This document shows, piece by piece, positions 7,847 to 31,988 of a DNA stretch of 42,779 nucleotides. The translations under genes and the position numbers were made by a program. Source of the stretch: Malonomonas rubra (lineage in GTDB: Bacteria; Desulfobacterota; Desulfuromonadia; Desulfuromonadales; Geopsychrobacteraceae); assembly GCF_003247215.1 (NCBI RefSeq), contig NZ_QKAP01000149.1, positions 1 through 42,779 of the forward strand. The letters run 5' to 3'. The number at the start of each line of letters is the position of its first letter. Position 1 is the first letter of the stretch. The notes below the pieces were generated by a model. The model saw only the letters and a list, made by a program, of their open reading frames with translations. It had not been told where the DNA came from and did not search any database.

Positions 7847-8789
7847 GCCAGAACCTCTCGCGCCTAGTTCGCAGCAAATAGAGGAAGAAAAGTCCGCCGA
7901 GAAGGGCGGTGATTATCCCCACCGGAAGCTCAGCGCCGCCGGGGATAATCGAGCGGGCTGCCGCATCGGCCAGAACGAGCAATAGCGCACCTAACAGGGT
8001 CGAGAAGAACAGGTTCTGACGCATATCGCTGCCGAACAGGCTGCGCGAAATATGCGGTACGATCAGGCCGACGAAGCCGATGATGCCGGTGTTGCTGACA
8101 GCTACAGCGACAAGGGCAGTGGCGACGATAAAGGAGACAGTGCGTAGCCGGTCGACGTTGATGCCGAGGCTCTGCGCAGAGTGCTCGTCGAACGCCAGCA
8201 GGTTGAGCTGTAGGGCTTTGCCGATAAACAGGATGTAGGTGACCAGCAGTACCAGCGCGCAGAACAGCAGCTTGCCCCAGTCGACGACGAAGAAGCCGCC
8301 CATCAACCAGAAAACGATCGAGGAGAGGGAGTCCTCGAAGAAATATTTGGCAAAGCTGATCACCGCCGAGGCGACGACATTTATTACCACCCCGGCGAGA
8401 ATCATGGTTACCGGATTGATGATGCCGTTGGTCTTCGATAGGCGGTAGACGCTTAGAAGGCCAACCAGGCCAGTGGTGAGGGCGATCACCGGCACCAGCG
8501 GCAGCGGCAACCCTAAGGCGATTGCCAGCACCGCGCCGAGTGCCGAAGAACTGGCCGCGCCGGTGGTGAAACTATCGGCCAAGGGGTTTTTCAGGGTCAG
8601 CTGGTAGATGCTTCCCGAGAGGCCGAGCATGGCCCCGATCACGGCGGAGAAGAGCACCCTTGGTAAGCGCAGGCCGAGTAGGATGTCGCGTTCGACCGGT
8701 GAGGCGTTGAGCGGGTTGATCGCTGTTGAGCCGATCAGACAGGAGGCGGCCAACGCCAGTAGAAATATGGTGAACAGCAGTTTTTTCAA
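7839..8789 (-). CDS. FecCD-family ABC permease (BtuC-like)
   Basis: A 316-residue integral membrane protein with about ten hydrophobic helices. Signatures of the BtuC/FecCD family are present: RLPRVLFSAVIGAMLGLSG near the N-terminus, NPLADSFTTGAASSSALGA, and GIIGFVGLIVPHISR (the L-loop that contacts the ATPase). It translocates corrinoid, heme or siderophore-type ligands; the riboswitch upstream points to corrinoids. Its start overlaps the stop of the ABC-2 permease gene by 4 bases (ATGA). Confidence 0.92.
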   Translation of the reverse strand: MKKLLFTIFLLALAASCLIGSTAINPLNASPVERDILLGLRLPRVLFSAVIGAMLGLSGSIYQLTLKNPLADSFTTGAASSSALGAVLAIALGLPLPLVPVIALTTGLVGLLSVYRLSKTNGIINPVTMILAGVVINVVASAVISFAKYFFEDSLSSIVFWLMGGFFVVDWGKLLFCALVLLVTYILFIGKALQLNLLAFDEHSAQSLGINVDRLRTVSFIVATALVAVAVSNTGIIGFVGLIVPHISRSLFGSDMRQNLFFSTLLGALLLVLADAAARSIIPGGAELPVGIITALLGGLFFLYLLRTRRERFWHG

Positions 8790-23294: not shown

Positions 23295-26200
23295 CTAAAC
23301 TTCATCACCTTCCAATGAGAAGATCGCTTCAAGACTTTTGAAACCGCCAGTTTTATCCTGCATATGTTTCTCGATTGCCAAGAGCCGTTGTCGAATGTGT
23401 TCTTCAACGATCAGTCGAAGTTTTTTGCCGCGCGCCAAATTTTCTTGTTTTATGCCTGCCAAGCCTTCAAGGGAGGCAGGGGCCATCGCAATTTCCAGCC
23501 TATTTTGAAAGAACATTTGTAGCTGCTGCTGGTAATCATTGTCGATATAGAAAACCTCTGGTACCAGCGATGAAAAACTGGAAACTGCCACTACATCTTT
23601 ACCGATCGTTCTGTAAGCATCTAGAACTTCAGGCTCCATGTCGAGATAGTTCTGAACCGGCATATACATCCGCTGCAGGTACTGGAGTACCTTTTCCGTT
23701 TTCTTATGATGTCCGCCGATGATAACTGAGGCGCCAATCTCACCTTTTCGCGCACCCTTTATCCAAGGGGCACCGGTTATCCCGAAGTCATTCAATACCG
23801 GAAGATGAACCAGGACAGACAGGGTGTTGATTGCCAGGGCAAAACCGGCTGATGGGCCGCCGACATTGTAGGAAGTGGAGAGCAACTGGTGGTGCAGGGA
23901 ATAACCATCCAGATATTCTCCAAGTAAGCGCGAGAGGTTGATCTTGGGTACCAGCGATTGAAGATAGGTTTCGACCAACGTTAAGGCCTCACGAGAGCTT
24001 TGGTGGGTCATCTGTACCGCAAGGTCGAGCTCGGCACCTGCTGCAGCACTGGTAGAAACGGCACCGGTGACAACGATCTTTTCCGGGAACATCCGGTAAA
24101 CAAGTGCCGAAGCGATCGGCAGGAGGATGCCACTGACATCGTTCGCGCCGACGCCGACCACGAAGCCGACTTGTGGTTCCTCAGAGAGTTCGGTTTCCAA
24201 AAATTCATCCAACTGTTGTTTGCTTTTGCGTAGCGGGCTGCTCGCTAGTTGCTGACGGGCAGTTTGCATGTGCCAGGCGGTAATCGGAAAATCTTTATCG
24301 TCTTCAATTTTTGCAAGACGTGAGATAATTTCGTCGAGCCTGCTCAACATCCCATCCTCACTCTGTCGAGCAGTTTGGGTCAACGTCGAGTCGGGCATCA
24401 TGCCTTCCAGTAAGCCGAGGAGGATTTTGTAGTTGAAACGAACAAAGCGGGATTTTTCTTCACTAGTTCCGCTACTAATCTGTTGCGCCTTGCGGATGAC
24501 TTCTAGTTCGGTCGTGCGCAATGAACGGACTTTTTCCGCATATGCAGTGTAATCGGCGGGGGTTTCGCAAAGTGCGTTAGCCTGCCGGGAAATCTCCCCA
24601 ATCGTCAGGCCATCGGCCAGAGGAATTCCCGCCATCTCCTGGGCGATGATGCTGGTGCAGTCTTCTTCACGTAAATGGCCTGTGACATTGAGCACTTTCA
24701 AACGTTTCGAACGGATCAGCGCCGGGTCGATAATGTCGAGGCGGTTGGTGGTCAGCACGGTAAAGACTCTATGAAGCGGAGTTTCACCATCGATGATGGA
24801 AAGGAATTTATTGGTGATCTTGTCGTACGGGCTACCGCCCTTTTGGCGGCGAGGGGCGACTGCGTCCCCTTCGTCAAAAAAGACCATAGCCGGTGAGATC
24901 ATCTTGGCGATGTCGTAAATCCGCTCCAAGTTGGCAACCATCCCTTCCAAGGGGTTGTTGACATCGGTTAGGTCGGTAAGGTTGGCGCAGATGTCCTGTA
25001 CATCGTGGTTATCCCCAAGCCAGGCTCTCACCATGAAGGTTTTCCCCGAACCTGGCGGGCCGGTCAAGACTACCCCCTTTTCATCGTTGATGTTGTAAAA
25101 AAGGGAGTTGTTGGCCATTTCCGAAAATTCGTTTTTGATCCCACCGATATACTCTTTCCAAGCGATGCTGCGATCCATCTGGGCAACCACTTTGCTGTAG
25201 ATCGACCCGTGAACGTTGCGAGCTACCGTTTTCAAGGCGTCGCGGACCAGCAGTTGATCGTCAAGGTGGTTTGGGCGAAAGCTGCCTTTGATGGTAATCA
25301 GAGAGGAGATCAGTCGCCGTACATAGGCCGGAGTGATGCGCAGACTGCGTTGGTGGAAAATCGGGTAGAGCTTCTCAACTGCCTGGTCGAGCTCTTCTTC
25401 GGAGAGGTGCGGGGAGTGCGGGGTGCGCGGATCCTTGGGATGATTCTTGCGACGTAACTCCAAGCAGACCACCTCGCGCAGATTGGCCGGGTTCTCCCAG
25501 ATATCATTTACATCGATGATAAGGCCACGTTCGACAAAGCGCCGGTAGATGGCTGGATCAAGCTGTTCCGGCTGGTCGGTGGTGGCGATCAGGATACAGT
25601 CGCGGCGACCATGGGCGATCTCGTCGAGGATGATGTTGGAAGTGTCAACTAGGGTCGATTGCTGTGACTTGATTGAGCTGCGTTCGTCCGGTACACCAAA
25701 AGCAGAGTGGGCTTCTTCCATGTGTCTTAGGCAGAGGCGTGCCGGGTTGCCCATCGCCTTGCGCAAATAGTTGCCCGGCTCTCCGGCCAGCGCAGTCTGG
25801 TAATCGTTCGGGGTGATCATCGCGTAATCGATGCGGACCCCTTCTTCATCTAGCGAAGAGAGCGCTTGGCTGATCCGGTTGCGAAAGAGGTAGCGAACAA
25901 TCGGTAGGCGGGAAAAAATTCTCAGCTTCGCCCTTTTGCGGCGTCGCTCGATGCGGATTGCCAGCTCCGGGTCGACTTCGGCGAGGCTGCGCCAGAAAGG
26001 TTGATTCGCCATCACTTCGTCACGCTTGGCCTTCAGGTCGACAACTGGAGTAACCTCCGAAGAGAAGAAGGTTTCCTCGATCGCCTGCTTGATGGTGGCG
26101 CTTTTGCCACTGCCAGAGTTGCCGATCACAAGTATCAGCGGAGCACGAGGTATCTCCGGATCGTCCGAGTATTCTTTAAGGATGAAAGCGTGATAGAGTT

Positions 26201-26609
26201 TATCGAAAGTTTTGCTGAGGGATTTAGGCACGAAGGTGTCGATGGTTTCCTTTTCCAGCAAGGAAGTCAGGTACTGATGGTCGTGCTGGTCCAGCTCTCT
26301 GGAGAGGATTCGGTTCCAGGCAGCGGTTGCGTTCTGAGACCCGGCTGCTTCAAAGCGGTTGTGCCAGTCGTTGAGTTTTCCCGGATCCTGCAGCAGGTCA
26401 AATTTGCGCTCTTCTTCTTTGAATAAACCTTGAATTAACAGGAAAATTCGTTTGGTCAGGGAACGAGTTGGGGTGTACTGGTGTAATCGTCTCAGCACGA
26501 AGCGGCGTGTTTCGCTGCTCCAACTGTTTACCAGCGCCTCAATCTGCTGAATTCTTGCTTCGGAGAGACTGACGTAAATCGGCGCTCTGGTTTTACGGGT
26601 TTGGGGCAT
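23295..26609 (-). CDS. Tandem AAA+ ATPase with C-terminal LonB-like serine protease domain
   Basis: The 1104-residue protein has a helical N-terminal region (1-150), a first AAA+ module with Walker A GNSGSGKS (163-170) but a poorly conserved Walker B, and a second AAA+ module with Walker A GPPGSGKT (517-524), Walker B MVFFDEGD (575-582) and sensor LTTN (619-622). After a helical linker comes a Lon-type S16 protease domain (about 810-1010), with Ser-920 in GGPSAG and Lys-970 in GGHHKK, spaced from the GG as in LonB. The Ser-Lys distance (50) exceeds the usual 43 through an apparent insertion near 947-953. It lacks the classical Lon N-domain. It overlaps the SPFH gene by 17 bases, implying a joint membrane-associated unfoldase-protease. 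Confidence 0.88.
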   Translation of the reverse strand: MPQTRKTRAPIYVSLSEARIQQIEALVNSWSSETRRFVLRRLHQYTPTRSLTKRIFLLIQGLFKEEERKFDLLQDPGKLNDWHNRFEAAGSQNATAAWNRILSRELDQHDHQYLTSLLEKETIDTFVPKSLSKTFDKLYHAFILKEYSDDPEIPRAPLILVIGNSGSGKSATIKQAIEETFFSSEVTPVVDLKAKRDEVMANQPFWRSLAEVDPELAIRIERRRKRAKLRIFSRLPIVRYLFRNRISQALSSLDEEGVRIDYAMITPNDYQTALAGEPGNYLRKAMGNPARLCLRHMEEAHSAFGVPDERSSIKSQQSTLVDTSNIILDEIAHGRRDCILIATTDQPEQLDPAIYRRFVERGLIIDVNDIWENPANLREVVCLELRRKNHPKDPRTPHSPHLSEEELDQAVEKLYPIFHQRSLRITPAYVRRLISSLITIKGSFRPNHLDDQLLVRDALKTVARNVHGSIYSKVVAQMDRSIAWKEYIGGIKNEFSEMANNSLFYNINDEKGVVLTGPPGSGKTFMVRAWLGDNHDVQDICANLTDLTDVNNPLEGMVANLERIYDIAKMISPAMVFFDEGDAVAPRRQKGGSPYDKITNKFLSIIDGETPLHRVFTVLTTNRLDIIDPALIRSKRLKVLNVTGHLREEDCTSIIAQEMAGIPLADGLTIGEISRQANALCETPADYTAYAEKVRSLRTTELEVIRKAQQISSGTSEEKSRFVRFNYKILLGLLEGMMPDSTLTQTARQSEDGMLSRLDEIISRLAKIEDDKDFPITAWHMQTARQQLASSPLRKSKQQLDEFLETELSEEPQVGFVVGVGANDVSGILLPIASALVYRMFPEKIVVTGAVSTSAAAGAELDLAVQMTHQSSREALTLVETYLQSLVPKINLSRLLGEYLDGYSLHHQLLSTSYNVGGPSAGFALAINTLSVLVHLPVLNDFGITGAPWIKGARKGEIGASVIIGGHHKKTEKVLQYLQRMYMPVQNYLDMEPEVLDAYRTIGKDVVAVSSFSSLVPEVFYIDNDYQQQLQMFFQNRLEIAMAPASLEGLAGIKQENLARGKKLRLIVEEHIRQRLLAIEKHMQDKTGGFKSLEAIFSLEGDEV

Positions 26610-27576
26610 AGCGCTTTCCTTTGTCGTTAGCCGGCTGCGGCTGCAAAGGCATCGGTGACGGCAAGGTCACCGGAACTGCTGTGGCGGTATTATTTAGCAC
26701 AAAAGTGTTCTGCCCCTGTTGATTCTTTTCGTAAGCCGTAGCCCATTTCTGTTGATTGAGAAAGTCGAACAGGGATGGGTCGTTCGCGCTACTGATGCCA
26801 AGTGCTTTGCGCATCTGCTGAATTGACTCGCTGTAGGCGGCATACAGCTTGCGGGTTCGACTGGCCTCCAAATCGGCAGCATAGTTTTCGGCCTCGGCGA
26901 TCAACTCACGGCGCTTTTTCTCTTCACTCGCTTCGGCGAGCTTTTCACCGTAACGGGTGTCGCGCAAGACGAAAGAGATGATCTCGATGCCATATTTCTG
27001 CTCCAGGGTCAGGCCGCCTTCGTTAATCGGCCTGTCTTTCAGAGTGCGGTAGATCTGTTCTTTAATCCTGGCCCGGTCCGAAATCAGCTCATTGATCGTT
27101 TCTCCCTGCATGACATCTTTAACGATCCCGTCGAAATCAGTCTGTAGCAGGGTAAGGGGGGAGCGGTTCTCGATTCCCCAGCGATTCAGGTCGCGGATGC
27201 GGTAGGTCAACATGGCGCTTGTCCAAAGCGCTATATTCCCTTTCGACATGATCCGCTGTGGTTCAATGGTGTTGCCAAGATGCAGTTCCTGGTTCATTAG
27301 CGGAACTTCTAGCTCCAACTGGGTAAAGATTGGCAGGCGGAAGTGCCAACCGACCCGGGTGATCGCATTACGCTCCCCGCTAAGGGTTTCGAGGATGAAG
27401 GCGTAATTCTGGCGTACCTTATAGAAAGTTCTGCTGGCGTAAACCATGGCGATGCCGCTATATGCCAAGATAAAAATGAAAATAGTCACAAAGATACGTT
27501 TGAAGAGGGCCTTTAAGCGGGCACGATGGAGTAAGCTCGATTGTCCTTCCTGGGTCACAACAGGCCTCCTGGGCAT
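26593..27576 (-). CDS. SPFH/Band 7 (stomatin-prohibitin) membrane protein
   Basis: A 327-residue protein with one N-terminal transmembrane helix (about 27-48), an SPFH domain (about 50-215; FRLPIFTQLELEVPLMNQE, WTSAMLTYRIRDLNRWG, GIEIISFVLRDTRYGEKL), a charged coiled coil (about 200-250) and a Gln/Pro-rich tail. It resembles HflC/HflK in plan but is a separate paralogue. SPFH proteins form large cage-like oligomers around membrane proteases. The 17-base overlap with the tandem-AAA Lon-like gene suggests it recruits or caps that protease. The ribosome site upstream of the ATG is weak, so the start is less certain. The 259 bases upstream contain no gene and may hold the promoter. Confidence 0.88.
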   Translation of the reverse strand: MPRRPVVTQEGQSSLLHRARLKALFKRIFVTIFIFILAYSGIAMVYASRTFYKVRQNYAFILETLSGERNAITRVGWHFRLPIFTQLELEVPLMNQELHLGNTIEPQRIMSKGNIALWTSAMLTYRIRDLNRWGIENRSPLTLLQTDFDGIVKDVMQGETINELISDRARIKEQIYRTLKDRPINEGGLTLEQKYGIEIISFVLRDTRYGEKLAEASEEKKRRELIAEAENYAADLEASRTRKLYAAYSESIQQMRKALGISSANDPSLFDFLNQQKWATAYEKNQQGQNTFVLNNTATAVPVTLPSPMPLQPQPANDKGKRYAPNP

Positions 27577-27835
27577 CAGCCGCCGGTTGGGGTTGCTTCA
27601 CTTGTCGATAATTGTTGATGCTATAAATCGAAGTTTAATGATAGCAGGAATGAAAATGATTTCCAGACAAAAATAGAAAAGCGTTTTATTTTAACTTAAA
27701 AACTTTATTTGGATTCTTGTGGCTAATGCCATTTTTGTAGGAGGGTGTTTTTTGAACTCGATTTTATGTTGGGGGGAAGAAGCTTTAAGTCGCTGATATA
27801 TAGCGCTTTTGCATGTGCCAGAAAACAGCGTTCTA

Positions 27836-28677: not shown

Positions 28678-29160
28678 TTAAATGGCAACACTTACCGATG
28701 TCGGGTTGAGGATTGTTACCAGCGCTTGCGGTTCGATTTCGACCAAGAGCCCGCGCTTGCCGCCGTTGATGCAAATTTTTTCCAATCCAAGGATCGATTC
28801 TTCGACATAAACCGGCAGCTCCTGCTTGGTCCCAAAGGGGGATATGCCACCGGTCTGATAGCCGGTTAGTCGGTCGGCCTTTTCCCGTGCGCAGGGACTT
28901 ATTTGCTTGACTTTCAGTTGCCGAGCCAGATGTTTTAAAGAAACCTCGCAACTGCCGTGCATTAGAACGATCAGCGGGTGGCCCTGGTCATCCTCCATCA
29001 CTAAGGTTTTTATTACTTGAAATTCATCGACGCCTAATTCGCGCGCACTGACTTTGGTACCGCCTTTGTCCTCGTACTTGTATGGCATCGGGACAAACTT
29101 GACCTTGTGTTGTTTAAGAACCCGGATCGCCTGGGTCATCGGTGTTTTGATTTTCGCCAT
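28678..29160 (-). CDS. ybaK: Cys-tRNA(Pro)/Cys-tRNA(Cys) deacylase, YbaK/EbsC type
   Basis: A 160-residue YbaK/EbsC-fold protein that hydrolyses cysteine misattached to tRNA-Pro. Markers are TPMTQAIRVLKQHKVKF, the VIKTLVMEDDQGHPLIVL strand pair, SCEVSLKHLARQL and GYQTGGISPFGTK. Its ATG overlaps the rhomboid stop by one base (TAATG), implying translational coupling with a membrane protease. The coupling of a tRNA editing enzyme, rhomboid and sirtuin fits a translation and protein quality theme. Confidence 0.92.
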   Translation of the reverse strand: MAKIKTPMTQAIRVLKQHKVKFVPMPYKYEDKGGTKVSARELGVDEFQVIKTLVMEDDQGHPLIVLMHGSCEVSLKHLARQLKVKQISPCAREKADRLTGYQTGGISPFGTKQELPVYVEESILGLEKICINGGKRGLLVEIEPQALVTILNPTSVSVAI

Positions 29161-29906
29161 TAGAGAACATACCTAAGGACCAGGGTGACAAGAACAAGCA
29201 GCAGGCTAAGCGCTGTCAGGACGACAAACAGCCAAGCGAGGAAATTAAAAATCGAATCGGTTTTCCGTTGAGCGCGGATGGTGGTCGGAATCAGCCAGCC
29301 GAAAGCGGCACCACCGAGCAAACCTCCGACATGGGCAGCGTTGTCAGCACCAACGACGAAGCCGAATACCAGTGCGATCACAACCCATTGAAAAAGAAAA
29401 TTCCGTCGTTGAATACCTAGACTACCTCCGATGCGATGGTAATAGCTAACGGCAAACCCGAAAATGCCGAACAGCGCACCGGATGCGCCGACTACCGTGA
29501 CCTGCGGGTGGAGCAGCAGTCCAGCAAGGGTGGCGACAATGCCGGTAACCGTGTAGATGACGAAGAAACGCTGCCAGCCTACTTCCGCCTCAATTAGTGG
29601 GCCGATCTGGTAGAGCACCACCATGTTGAAGCCAAGATGGATGATGCCGCCATGCATGTAGGCGTAAGAGATGCAGCGCCAGATATCTCCCAATTGGAAG
29701 ACAAACGGCCAGTATTGGGCTCCCCATGCGCGGAGCAGGCGGATGTCGGGACTTAAAATCACCTGCATGCCGTGGCCAAGTACGGTGCCATGCAGCACCA
29801 TCAGGGTGAACATCACGAGATTGGTATAAATAAGAATCTGCACCAGGGAATGACCACGTAGGGAGCGGGTGATAAAGAACTTATGGCGTTGGTAGTGGGC
29901 GTTCAA
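29160..29906 (-). CDS. Rhomboid-family intramembrane serine protease
   Basis: The 248-residue protein has about seven hydrophobic segments. Catalytic Ser-142 lies in GASGALFG and His-192 in NAAHVGGLLGG; the supporting HLGFNM (His-90, Asn-94) motif in helix 2 is also present. It would cleave transmembrane helices within the inner membrane. It lies 130 bases downstream of hflC and overlaps ybaK at its stop. The ribosome site is GGAGTC about 8 bases upstream of the ATG. Confidence 0.93.
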   Translation of the reverse strand: MNAHYQRHKFFITRSLRGHSLVQILIYTNLVMFTLMVLHGTVLGHGMQVILSPDIRLLRAWGAQYWPFVFQLGDIWRCISYAYMHGGIIHLGFNMVVLYQIGPLIEAEVGWQRFFVIYTVTGIVATLAGLLLHPQVTVVGASGALFGIFGFAVSYYHRIGGSLGIQRRNFLFQWVVIALVFGFVVGADNAAHVGGLLGGAAFGWLIPTTIRAQRKTDSIFNFLAWLFVVLTALSLLLVLVTLVLRYVL

Positions 29907-29988
29907 GTTTGGACTCCTCAGAAGGGATTTTCTTAAAATTAGCGCAGAAAATAAAATACGGCAAGTTGAGCCTCTGACACATTACGAA

Positions 29989-30019
29989 ACAAGGGGCTCT
30001 CAGGTAGAGAACCCCTTGT
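29989..30019 (-). terminator. Hairpin after hflC, weak terminator
   Basis: ACAAGGGG (29989-29996) pairs with CCCCTTGT (30012-30019) and the loop flanks can extend the stem (CTCTC/GAGA). Only a short T tract follows on the minus strand, so it may attenuate rather than end transcription into the rhomboid gene. Confidence 0.5.
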
Positions 30020-30036
30020 GGCGCGAAACTTCTTAA

Positions 30037-30963
30037 TTACTGAGCTTTTTTCAAATAGCGGTAGTAATCGGAGTCGGTTGAAATAATAAGCTTGCCATTC
30101 TCCTTGATCGCTTTCTTATACGACTCCAAGGTGCGCAAGAAGGCATAGAATTCCTTGTCTTGGTTGTAGGCGTTAGCGTAAATGGCAGCCGCCTGTGCAT
30201 CAGCTGCACCACGGACTTCCAGCGCCTTGCGATAGGCCTCTGAGCTGATCTCCTTCAATTCCCGTTGCATCTGACCGAGGATTTCCGCTTTTTCTCCTTC
30301 CCCCTCGGAGCGGTATTGAGCGGCGACCTTCTTTCGCTCGTTGATCATCCGCTCATAAACCCGGGTTCGGACCTGCTCGACGTAGTTGATCCGCTTGATC
30401 TGCACGTCAATCAGCTCAATGCCGTATTCGGGGGTGCTAGTCTTAGCTTTTTCCAGAATGCCAGCAAGAATCTCCTCTCTACCGACTAGATCCTCCTTGG
30501 TGATCTTTTGACCTTCAACCTCGAAGTGTTCATCCTCCGCACTGACATAATCACTGCCTCGCACCAGCTCAACCAGCAGGTGGCCGGAAACAGCGTCGCG
30601 GACCACCGAGTCGATGATGTCGTCGAGGCGGCTTTGTGCGCCCCGTTCGGTTGCGACCGTCTTGTAGAAGGTCAGCGGATCCTTAATCTTCCAGCGAGCA
30701 GTAGTATCGACCCAGATAAATTTTTTATCCTTGGTCGGGATCTGGTTCGGGTCACCGTCCCATTTTAAAATGCGGTGTTCAAAGCGGATGACTTTCTGCA
30801 TAAAGGGAATTTTAAAGTGCAATCCTGGGAAGATTACATCGCCGATCGGTTTGCCAAACTGGGTAACGATCGCCTGTTCCGCTTCGTTGACAACGAAAAG
30901 TCCGCCGCGGCCGATGATAAAAAGGGCAAATATCAGTACGATGAAAAAAGGTGCTTTTTTCAT
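30037..30963 (-). CDS. hflC: HflC, SPFH modulator of FtsH
   Basis: A 308-residue SPFH protein with an N-terminal signal-anchor helix (FFIVLIFALFIIGRGGLFVV), the HflC-typical VNEAEQAIVTQFGKPIG and GLHFKIPFMQKVIRFEHRIL, the region VQIKRINYVEQVRTRVYERM, and the AAAIYANAYNQDKEFYAFLR segment near the C-terminus. With HflK it forms a periplasm-facing cage that regulates the FtsH protease. It overlaps hflK by 4 bases (ATGA). Confidence 0.95.
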   Translation of the reverse strand: MKKAPFFIVLIFALFIIGRGGLFVVNEAEQAIVTQFGKPIGDVIFPGLHFKIPFMQKVIRFEHRILKWDGDPNQIPTKDKKFIWVDTTARWKIKDPLTFYKTVATERGAQSRLDDIIDSVVRDAVSGHLLVELVRGSDYVSAEDEHFEVEGQKITKEDLVGREEILAGILEKAKTSTPEYGIELIDVQIKRINYVEQVRTRVYERMINERKKVAAQYRSEGEGEKAEILGQMQRELKEISSEAYRKALEVRGAADAQAAAIYANAYNQDKEFYAFLRTLESYKKAIKENGKLIISTDSDYYRYLKKAQ

Positions 30964-31988
30964 TTGGCACCTCCTTCCACTGCTTTACGCAAGGGGAGCA
31001 ATGGCAACAGGCCGCCGTTGTTATCGTCCATGATGTAGGTTTCCTCAAGCCGGGGCAGAATCACTTCCATCGTTTCCAAGTGGATGCGCCGCCGGGTCAC
31101 TTCGGGAGCTTTCTTGTACTCGGCCAGTAGAGCCAGGAAACGATTAGTTTCCCCTTGCGCCTTGTTGATCCGCTCGACGGCATAACCTTCCGCTTCCTGC
31201 AGAGCTCGTTTGGCCTCGCCGCGAGCACGTGGCACCTCACGGTTGAACTGCTCGCGCGCCTGAAAGATCAAACTCTCTTTCTGTTGTTCCGCTTCGTTGA
31301 CCTCGTTGAAAGCGTCTTTTACCGGGTCGGGAGGGGTTACATCCTGAAACTTTACGGTGACGATCCGCACGCCGATGTCATATTGATTGAGTGTCTGCTG
31401 CAGGTTCTGCTGGATTTCGCCGGCCAGCGCAGCCCGCTCGGTGGTCAGAACCTGGGTGACATTGGCGTTGCCGATCGCTTTGCGGACCATTGCTTCGCAG
31501 ATGTCGCGGATGGTGCCGACCGGATCCTGGATTTTGAAGATATACTTGAAGGGATCGGAAACCTGGAACTGGACGATCCATTCCACGTCGCTGACGTTCA
31601 GGTCGCCGGTCAGGGTCAGGGATTCCTCTTCCAGTCCTCGCTTACTGAAGCTGGAGCGGACCCCCGGGGTGACGGTACGGTAGCCGAATTCTTCTTTCAG
31701 CACCCGACCGGTCGGCACAAGATAGACTTGCTCAATACCGAATGGGATCTTGAAGTGCAAACCCGGATCGGCGAAGCCGGCGAACTTGCCGAAGCGAAGC
31801 ACCACCCCGGTTTCCTCGGTGTCAACTTCGTAGAAGCTGCTGTACGCGCCAATGACGACCACCAGTAGCAGAATGACCAGCGGGAAAAAACCACGTTGCG
31901 GGTTGAATTTTTGTTTGAATTGCTCTCTAATTTCGATGACCTTCTTTTCCAGATCATCAGCGGAAGGACCTTGTCCCCAATCCTGCAT
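30960..31988 (-). CDS. hflK: HflK, SPFH modulator of FtsH
   Basis: The 342-residue partner of HflC has a short cytoplasmic N-terminus, one membrane helix (FFPLVILLLVVVIGAYSSFY), the HflK-type VDTEETGVVLRFGKF and GLHFKIPFGIEQVYLVPTGR, and the ending FLALLAEYKKAPEVTRRRIH. GAGAGGTTAAG precedes the ATG. It is 107 bases downstream of the TraB-family gene on the same strand. No ftsH is visible here, so the partner protease must be elsewhere, or the tandem-AAA protease may also be involved. Confidence 0.95.
   Translation of the reverse strand: MQDWGQGPSADDLEKKVIEIREQFKQKFNPQRGFFPLVILLLVVVIGAYSSFYEVDTEETGVVLRFGKFAGFADPGLHFKIPFGIEQVYLVPTGRVLKEEFGYRTVTPGVRSSFSKRGLEEESLTLTGDLNVSDVEWIVQFQVSDPFKYIFKIQDPVGTIRDICEAMVRKAIGNANVTQVLTTERAALAGEIQQNLQQTLNQYDIGVRIVTVKFQDVTPPDPVKDAFNEVNEAEQQKESLIFQAREQFNREVPRARGEAKRALQEAEGYAVERINKAQGETNRFLALLAEYKKAPEVTRRRIHLETMEVILPRLEETYIMDDNNGGLLPLLPLRKAVEGGAK

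What the first reader, a model, noticed from the sequence alone, without database searches (positions are those of the whole stretch)
23295..27576. SPFH membrane protein paired with a tandem-AAA+ LonB-like protease
The two genes overlap by 17 bases. One encodes a membrane-anchored SPFH protein, the other a protein with two AAA+ modules and a Lon-type Ser-Lys protease domain (Ser-920, Lys-970), without the usual Lon N-domain or a membrane helix of its own. This looks like a second, independent version of the HflKC-FtsH idea: an SPFH cage that tethers a soluble unfoldase-protease to the membrane. The first AAA+ module has a good Walker A but a weak Walker B, so it may be structural or regulatory.
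Basis: partly seen in the sequence, partly recalled or inferred. Interest (0 to 1): 0.82.

Follow-up and report, generated by a model that had tools for sequence, protein, structure and literature searches.

The report
SPFH scaffold with Cdc48-Lon protease
Some Desulfobacterota bacteria carry a tightly linked two-gene unit, a membrane scaffold protein plus a protease that fuses a two-ring Cdc48-like unfolding motor to a Lon-type cutting domain, which probably extracts and destroys membrane proteins alongside the well-known HflKC-FtsH system.

Summary
Window 23295-26609(-) encodes a 1104-aa protein with a divergent first AAA+ module, an intact Cdc48-D2-like second module and a divergent Lon-type protease domain; Ser920, Lys970 and both Walker A lysines are invariant in 23 of 23 aligned sequences. 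The upstream gene overlaps it by 17 nt and encodes a one-helix SPFH protein (start probably GTG 27558). In the home class the two genes occur in 46 and 45 of 277 genomes, 44 shared; of three exceptions two are cut by contig ends and one is a copy with a deletion or assembly break. The module is distinct from the genome's HflKC, FtsH and three LonA. The 'HflKC-FtsH idea' is only partly supported: charge bias predicts a periplasmic SPFH domain (40 of 45), so a cytosolic protease could touch only the short SPFH tail or the membrane; a conserved basic insertion in AAA1 is a candidate dock. No complex could be modelled. I judge it a new variant of SPFH-AAA+ protease pairing.

The parts
26593..27558 (-). 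SPFH/Band_7 membrane protein, 321 aa from GTG 27558 (the listed ORF starts at ATG 27576, 327 aa)
   Evidence: Band_7 E=1.4e-17; AGGAGG ahead of the GTG, homologous starts in relatives
27439..27495 (-). single N-terminal transmembrane helix of the SPFH protein, preceded by a basic ~20-residue tail
   Evidence: hydropathy 2.32 and flank charges
26593..26609 (-). 17-nt overlap of SPFH stop and protease start (translational coupling inferred)
23295..26609 (-). tandem AAA+ / Lon-type protease, 1104 aa ('Cdc48-Lon')
26220..26609 (-). helical N-terminal region, residues 1-130
   Evidence: AlphaFold secondary structure, low to medium confidence; no Pfam match in this region among those shown
25200..26219 (-). 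AAA1, residues ~131-470: Walker A GNSGSGKS 163-170, Walker B position RHMEEAH 295-301, sensor-1 ATTD, arginine finger candidates R356/R357
   Evidence: very weak alignment to Cdc48 D1 (E=0.13)
25854..25958 (-). conserved basic insertion in AAA1, residues 218-252, net charge +11 here, +6 to +11 in 23 of 23 sequences; candidate membrane or SPFH dock
   Evidence: docking is inference
24540..25172 (-). AAA2, residues ~480-690: GPPGSGKT 517-524, FFDE 577-580, TTNR 620-623
   Evidence: Pfam AAA E=3e-25; nearest solved relatives Cdc48/p97 D2
23550..24209 (-). Lon-type (S16) protease domain, residues ~801-1020
23850..23852 (-). Ser920 codon
23700..23702 (-). Lys970 codon
27636..27649 (-). TCCTGCTATCATTA, extended -10-like element ahead of the SPFH gene, kept in close relatives (L106, L024)
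   Evidence: promoter function inferred

Best explanation
The two genes form one translationally coupled module for ATP-dependent degradation at the inner membrane. The SPFH protein oligomerises in the membrane and gathers or presents client proteins. The cytosolic partner assembles as a Cdc48/p97-like two-tier unfoldase whose second ring feeds a fused Lon-type Ser-Lys chamber, so extraction and cutting are done by one polypeptide. It docks at the inner leaflet through the conserved basic insertion of AAA1 and/or the basic tail of the SPFH protein. Shown: gene pairing, domain anatomy, invariant catalytic and Walker residues. Predicted: one SPFH membrane helix, no helix in the protease. Inferred: hexamer, two rings, physical contact, docking sites, membrane-protein clients.
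For: SPFH directly upstream in 38 of 38 loci, window included, and 28 of 28 loci of a second class; in the 51 long stretches, 46 of 46 full-length proteases (genomes overlap with the two counts before). Presence in 46 and 45 of 277 genomes with 44 shared (hypergeometric 1.5e-47, ignoring relatedness). No other gene recurs as often: the next two families are in 10 of 51 loci each. Distance matrices of the two proteins correlate, r=0.94, best of 2000 permutations 0.48, n=22. Both Walker A lysines, AAA2 Walker B and sensor 1, His906/907, Ser920, Thr945 and Lys970 kept in 23 of 23 sequences. Basic AAA1 insertion, +6 to +11 in 23 of 23. SPFH proteins with AAA+ proteases are established elsewhere (HflKC-FtsH: PMC12048511, abstract and passages). 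An Hsp20 gene follows within 10-111 bp, same strand, in 3 of 28 loci.
Against: No interaction was shown or modelled; the monomer models have mean pLDDT 61.5 and 62.4, with much of AAA2 and parts of the protease domain below 50. Predicted topology puts the SPFH domain and the protease on opposite sides. No sigma-32 or CIRCE enrichment upstream. Conserved adjacency does not prove contact. Much of the distance correlation comes from shared ancestry. Protease matches without an intact SPFH gene exist: remnants in L169, L171, L172 and L183 and the broken copy of G468/L028.
Confidence: 0.55

Rival explanations
1. The SPFH protein is a substrate or regulator of the protease rather than its scaffold: the protease controls SPFH levels or assembly, as an archaeal membrane protease cleaves a stomatin.
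For: SPFH genes in operons with NfeD-type protease genes are described (PMC2636767, passages), and a stomatin-specific protease 1510-N is known (PMC3795559, listing and abstract start). The opposed predicted topology makes a regulator or client role as easy as a cage.
Against: That protease is, as recalled, ClpP-like and not an AAA+ protease. A periplasmic SPFH domain would have to be pulled through the membrane by the motor.
Confidence: 0.2
2. The SPFH domain is cytosolic (helix N-out) and forms a dome around the protease under the membrane.
For: The flank after the helix is also positive (mean +2.4), so the charge bias is not absolute; 2 of 45 lean the other way and 3 are equal.
Against: N flank more positive in 40 of 45; same-genome HflC and HflK show the same sense, the C76 SPFH protein the opposite one.
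Confidence: 0.15
3. Anti-phage or other conflict module.
For: Patchy presence and weak IetA/TRIP13-type AAA hits in PADLOC.
Against: Those hits lie in the generic AAA cores; no relative found among viral contigs with the two patterns tried; no plasmid place covering 80% of the query; the recurring flank genes I read by eye look metabolic, regulatory or chaperone; location is kept within close relatives.
Confidence: 0.05

Closest known systems
HflKC-FtsH (E. coli inner-membrane complex)
   Same: SPFH protein(s) with one N-terminal helix and a (here predicted) periplasmic SPFH domain, paired with a hexameric-type AAA+ protease
   Different: one SPFH gene instead of HflK plus HflC; partner has two AAA+ modules and a Lon-type Ser-Lys domain, no predicted membrane helix and no M41 zinc domain found; both systems coexist here
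Cdc48/p97 (VCP), including bacterial CDC48-family ATPases
   Same: tandem AAA+ modules; AAA2 best matches p97 D2; Foldseek top hits p97/Cdc48 on a poor model
   Different: AAA1 divergent with a long insertion (~75 residues by my estimate); no p97 N-domain family among those shown; a protease domain is fused on; 80 bits against a CDC48 cut-off of 802.65
Lon proteases (LonA, archaeal LonB, S16)
   Same: Ser-Lys protease domain with conserved His and Thr; best solved relatives are archaeal LonB protease domains (1z0b, E=4e-5)
   Different: two AAA+ modules, the second Cdc48-like, instead of one Lon AAA+; no LON N-domain found; no LonB-type membrane helix by hydropathy; far below Lon/LonB cut-offs
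Stomatin / prohibitin family SPFH proteins
   Same: Band_7 domain followed by a long helix; Foldseek hits human stomatin (9e-4), HflK/C and PHB1/2 on a poor model
   Different: only weak HflK (17 of 24) and HflC (13 of 24) hits in NCBIfam, so probably a subfamily of its own; no NfeD gene recognised beside it

Membership tests
SPFH / Band_7 superfamily | Band_7 domain above the curated cut-off | tested here: met
   64.7 bits against 23.6; 24 of 24 aligned sequences match at E<=0.01
HflK or HflC | score above the HflK/HflC equivalog cut-off | tested here: not met
   HflK 17.4 bits against 159.4; no HflC hit at E<=0.01 for the window protein
HflKC-FtsH system | partner is an M41 zinc metalloprotease with membrane helices | tested here: not met
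   no M41 family among those shown for the partner; no membrane helix by hydropathy; the genome's only M41 hit is elsewhere, C70
HflKC-FtsH system | SPFH domains in the periplasm, N-terminal helix N-in | tested here: inconclusive
   charge bias predicts it in 40 of 45; no experiment
HflKC-FtsH-like function | physical complex of SPFH protein and AAA+ protease | not testable with these tools
   no complex prediction offered
Lon (S16) | Ser-Lys dyad in a Lon-type protease domain | tested here: met
   S920 and K970 invariant in 23 of 23 sequences, aligned to LonB Ser and Lys; fold itself not confidently modelled
Lon (S16) | Lon_C above the Pfam cut-off | tested here: inconclusive
   19.2 bits against 21.1; 25.2 'with its neighbours'; 21 of 23 sequences hit at E<=1e-3
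LonA / LonB | equivalog cut-offs; single Lon AAA+ module with LON domain (LonA) or membrane helices (LonB) | tested here: not met
   lon 37.4/608.05, LonB 34.7/516.6 bits; no helix by hydropathy
Cdc48 family | CDC48 subfamily cut-off | tested here: not met
   80 bits against 802.65
Cdc48 family | two AAA modules of the classic AAA type | tested here: inconclusive
   AAA2 clear; AAA1 aligns to Cdc48 D1 only at E=0.13

The most novel reading that the evidence does not exclude
A bacterial one-polypeptide counterpart of the p97-plus-protease route of membrane-protein extraction: a two-ring Cdc48-like motor with its own Lon-type chamber, recruited from the cytosol to a periplasmic SPFH assembly across the bilayer, working in parallel with HflKC-FtsH and built from unrelated protease parts.
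Probability: 0.3. Interest if true: 0.82.

Novelty: new variant of a known kind. Interest (0 to 1): 0.62.

Why it matters
What SPFH assemblies do for AAA+ proteases is debated (a cage that shields substrates, or a chamber with an entryway that feeds them: PMC12048511, abstract and passages). A pair in which the SPFH partner is a single gene and the protease is a soluble, unrelated Cdc48-Lon fusion would let one separate what the SPFH assembly contributes from what FtsH's own membrane part contributes. It would also be a Lon-type protease tied to a membrane scaffold, with Cdc48-like tandem modules.

Tried and rejected
Heat-shock control: sigma-32-like and CIRCE-like sites in 300 bp upstream of 45 loci were no more frequent than in shuffles; dropped. 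A palindrome AAACANTGTTT is enriched instead, regulator unknown.

Link with the neighbouring hflKC/rhomboid/ybaK/sir2 genes: kept only in close relatives; dropped as part of the module.

Defence: weak AAA-only PADLOC hits, nothing in the viral-contig scan; dropped.

Plasmids: 404 of 72,556 records match but none over 80% of the query in one place; the 12 rows shown are named AAA family or CDC48 family ATPases.

Structure: both AlphaFold jobs gave low-confidence models from 23 and 24 related sequences; the fold searches on them are used only as weak support. No complex prediction is offered.

Profile comparison of the SPFH family with single HflK, HflC and C76 SPFH sequences was too weak to place it (best: C76 protein, probability 64%).

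Distribution outside the phylum was not measured: the single genome-contig scan used patterns from one protein and found only relatives of about 50% identity or more, and the genome search could not be centred on a plasmid or contig locus.

Gene calling is crude: in GC-rich loci it prefers an ORF antisense to the SPFH gene. I first took the whole of cluster 2 for that artefact; the re-check shows 11 antisense ORFs chained to a real, divergently oriented upstream gene in 10 loci. SPFH counts were therefore taken by direct tblastn. The same re-check corrected my belief that the G468 exception was a contig-end effect. Neither change moved the odds.
Full report
WHAT IS THERE. On the minus strand, 26593-27576 and 23295-26609 are two overlapping ORFs of 327 and 1104 aa; the overlap is 17 nt. 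The window is contig C23 of a 3.13-Mb genome. A contig of Malonomonas rubra DSM 5091 (975 bases) matches in length a contig of a genome that the tool calls 'same genus' (G466), so the host is probably a Malonomonas relative (inference). The first gene encodes a Band_7 protein (E=1.4e-17). Its start is better placed at GTG 27558: AGGAGG precedes it and relatives start at the matching place. An extended -10-like element lies at 27636-27649 and recurs in close relatives.

THE LARGE PROTEIN. It has a helical N-terminal region; a first P-loop module with GNSGSGKS (163-170); a second AAA+ module (Pfam AAA 513-638, E=3e-25); a linker; and a divergent Lon-type protease domain (Lon_C 806-953, E=1e-3, just below the cut-off). 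AAA2 is nearest to Cdc48/p97 D2. AAA1 aligns to Cdc48 D1 only at E=0.13, with MEE near the place of the Walker B DE. The protease domain finds archaeal LonB protease domains in the PDB at E=4e-5, and in those alignments Ser920 and Lys970 fall on the Ser and Lys of the Lon dyad (catalytic roles recalled). In 23 full-length sequences (the window and 22 relatives, down to 50% identity), invariant positions include K169, E298, E299, K523, D579, E580, N622, H906, H907, S920, T945 and K970. So the enzyme is expected to be active. AAA1 keeps Walker A (S or T at the last position) and an unusual but invariant EE; I do not call it inactive.

A BASIC INSERTION. Compared with p97 (spacing recalled), AAA1 carries roughly 75 extra residues between the P-loop helix and the next core strand. 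Residues 218-252 in it carry net +11 here, the highest value of any 35-residue stretch of the protein (reached by 4 of 1070 windows), and +6 to +11 in 23 of 23 sequences. I infer a dock for the acidic inner leaflet or for the SPFH assembly; nothing here proves it.

PAIRING. The counts below share genomes with one another. (a) Loci L001-L028: 24 from genome contigs and four from searches of the window's phylum; 26 of 28 show both genes on one strand (L003 and L008 appear to be the same contig, and L002 is the window). The other two are a truncated piece of the window itself (L001) and L028, see below. (b) Home class, 277 genomes: protease profile in 46, SPFH profile in 45, 44 in common; 44 of 45 SPFH hits are adjacent on the same strand. 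The three exceptions: the SPFH gene of G419 ends 20 bases from a contig end; the protease piece of G518 starts at a contig start; in G468 (contig of the same length as that of L028) the protease lacks roughly its first 390-415 residues in mid-contig, and what stands before it is the promoter-like element and the first few codons of an SPFH gene, so this copy has a deletion or an assembly break. (c) 38 of 38 loci L029-L066, the window included, have the SPFH gene directly upstream. (d) Class of G254: 49 of 192 genomes have a protease match; of 28 newly delivered loci, 28 have it. Matches without a delivered locus were not part of that count. (e) In 51 long stretches (30, and the window), 46 hold a full-length protease and 46 of 46 have the SPFH gene directly upstream. 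In the phylum draw the protease is in 12 of 395; in the class of G021 in 5 of 12. The tests ignore relatedness.

CONTROL FOR SYNTENY. Around the same 51 loci no other gene recurs like the pair. The next are a divergently oriented upstream gene in 10 loci, whose letters look like a DUF362/ferredoxin-type protein (named by eye; all 10 in the home class), and a response-regulator cluster in 10. So the flanks are far less conserved than the pair, though not random. Distances of the two proteins correlate at 0.94 (22 loci; best of 2000 permutations 0.48). The overlap is 71 nt in 11 of the 26 pairs and 17 nt in 5.

RELATION TO HflKC-FtsH. The same window carries hflK (30960-31988) and hflC (30037-30963), both above their cut-offs. 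The genome has one M41 hit, three full-size Lon ORFs and four Band_7 hits in all. The SPFH protein of the pair is neither HflK nor HflC by curated cut-offs; weak HflK and HflC hits appear in 17 and 13 of 24 sequences. I compared charges on both sides of the membrane helix: net +4.8 before and +2.4 after on average; the N side is more positive in 40 of 45, equal in 3, lower in 2. HflC (+2/-2) and HflK (+3/-2) of the same genome, periplasmic in E. coli (PMC12048511, passages), lean the same way; the SPFH protein on C76 leans the other way (-1/+2). So the SPFH domain is probably periplasmic. The protease has no predicted helix and should be cytosolic (inference). The literal cage then fails, while a membrane platform with a docked cytosolic protease stays possible.

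HOW IT MOST LIKELY WORKS. SPFH subunits assemble in the inner membrane and concentrate clients; the protease docks beneath, AAA1 (with the basic insertion) or the N-region facing the membrane; AAA2 and possibly AAA1 pull the client into the Lon-type chamber. Order of certainty: gene pair and intact active-site residues (shown), membrane anchoring of the SPFH protein (predicted), hexameric two-ring protease (by family), contact and clients (guess). An Hsp20 gene lies 10, 77 and 111 bp downstream on the same strand in 3 of 28 loci (L113, L116, L118; two of the 28 end before the next gene), which fits a proteostasis role, but no heat-shock promoter signal was found.

EVOLUTION. The module is patchy. 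Decay accounts for part of this: remnants without a full protease lie inside long contigs in four genomes: a protease-domain remnant in L169 of G749, which also has a complete pair elsewhere (L170); short remnants in L171 and L172; in L183 a gene lacking its middle, beside part of an SPFH gene. No SPFH match was found in L169, L171 or L172. Location is kept within close relatives, so vertical descent with loss is likely; transfer is not excluded.

LITERATURE. PMC2636767 (passages only) sorts prokaryotic SPFH proteins into 12 subfamilies and links them to NfeD and FtsH; 'ATPase' does not occur in its text, and I saw no Lon partner in the 12 passages shown. PMC2605481 (passages only) lists Lon architectures, with none of tandem Cdc48-like modules in the passages shown. 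My searches combining SPFH or stomatin, Lon, AAA+, Cdc48, Malonomonas and Desulfuromonas listed no paper whose title or abstract start describes this pair; the library holds open-licence papers only, so this is not proof of absence.

VERDICT. Real, conserved and, as far as searched, undescribed as a unit; a new variant of the SPFH plus AAA+ protease theme rather than a new category.

Noticed in passing
300 bp upstream of the SPFH gene in the pair loci, e.g. L118, L107, L110, L117: A palindrome AAACANTGTTT occurs exactly in 10 of 45 upstream regions against a mean of 0 in 20 block shuffles, and TTAGCACA in 9 of 45 (mean 0.25); possible operator sites of an unknown regulator. In six of the seven long loci with a TTAGCACA-like site a divergent gene shares the region, so which gene the sites serve is open.
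   Followed up: partly
L110, L111, L112, L114, L115, L116, L117, L119, L122, L132, upstream of the SPFH gene, opposite strand: A divergently oriented gene that looks by eye like a DUF362/ferredoxin-domain protein recurs next to the pair in 10 loci of the home class.
   Followed up: partly
L169 5950-7342, L171 6408-6914, L172 4430-4732, L183 6511-7760: Decayed or internally deleted copies of the protease gene inside long contigs; the module is being lost in some lineages.
   Followed up: partly
L028 around 7850-8060 (same copy as G468, L134): A copy in which the start of the SPFH gene is followed directly by the protease from about residue 415; deletion or assembly break.
   Followed up: partly
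L113, L116, L118 directly downstream of the protease gene: An Hsp20 small heat-shock protein gene (named by eye) follows within 10-111 bp on the same strand.
   Followed up: partly
L173 and L174, downstream of the pair, opposite strand; also present in L171: A gene family whose letters look like FloA-type (SPFH5) flotillin beside a small membrane protein (clusters 20, 21); naming is by eye, not searched.
   Followed up: no
window 28678-31988: hflK, hflC, a rhomboid protease and a YbaK-type Cys-tRNA(Pro) deacylase lie together on the pair's strand; the rhomboid recurs near the pair in close relatives only.
   Followed up: no
L009, L010, L012-L014, L016-L018, L020, L023, L025: The SPFH gene overlaps the protease gene by 71 nt in 11 of 26 pairs, so the start of the protease gene is read in two frames.
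   Followed up: no
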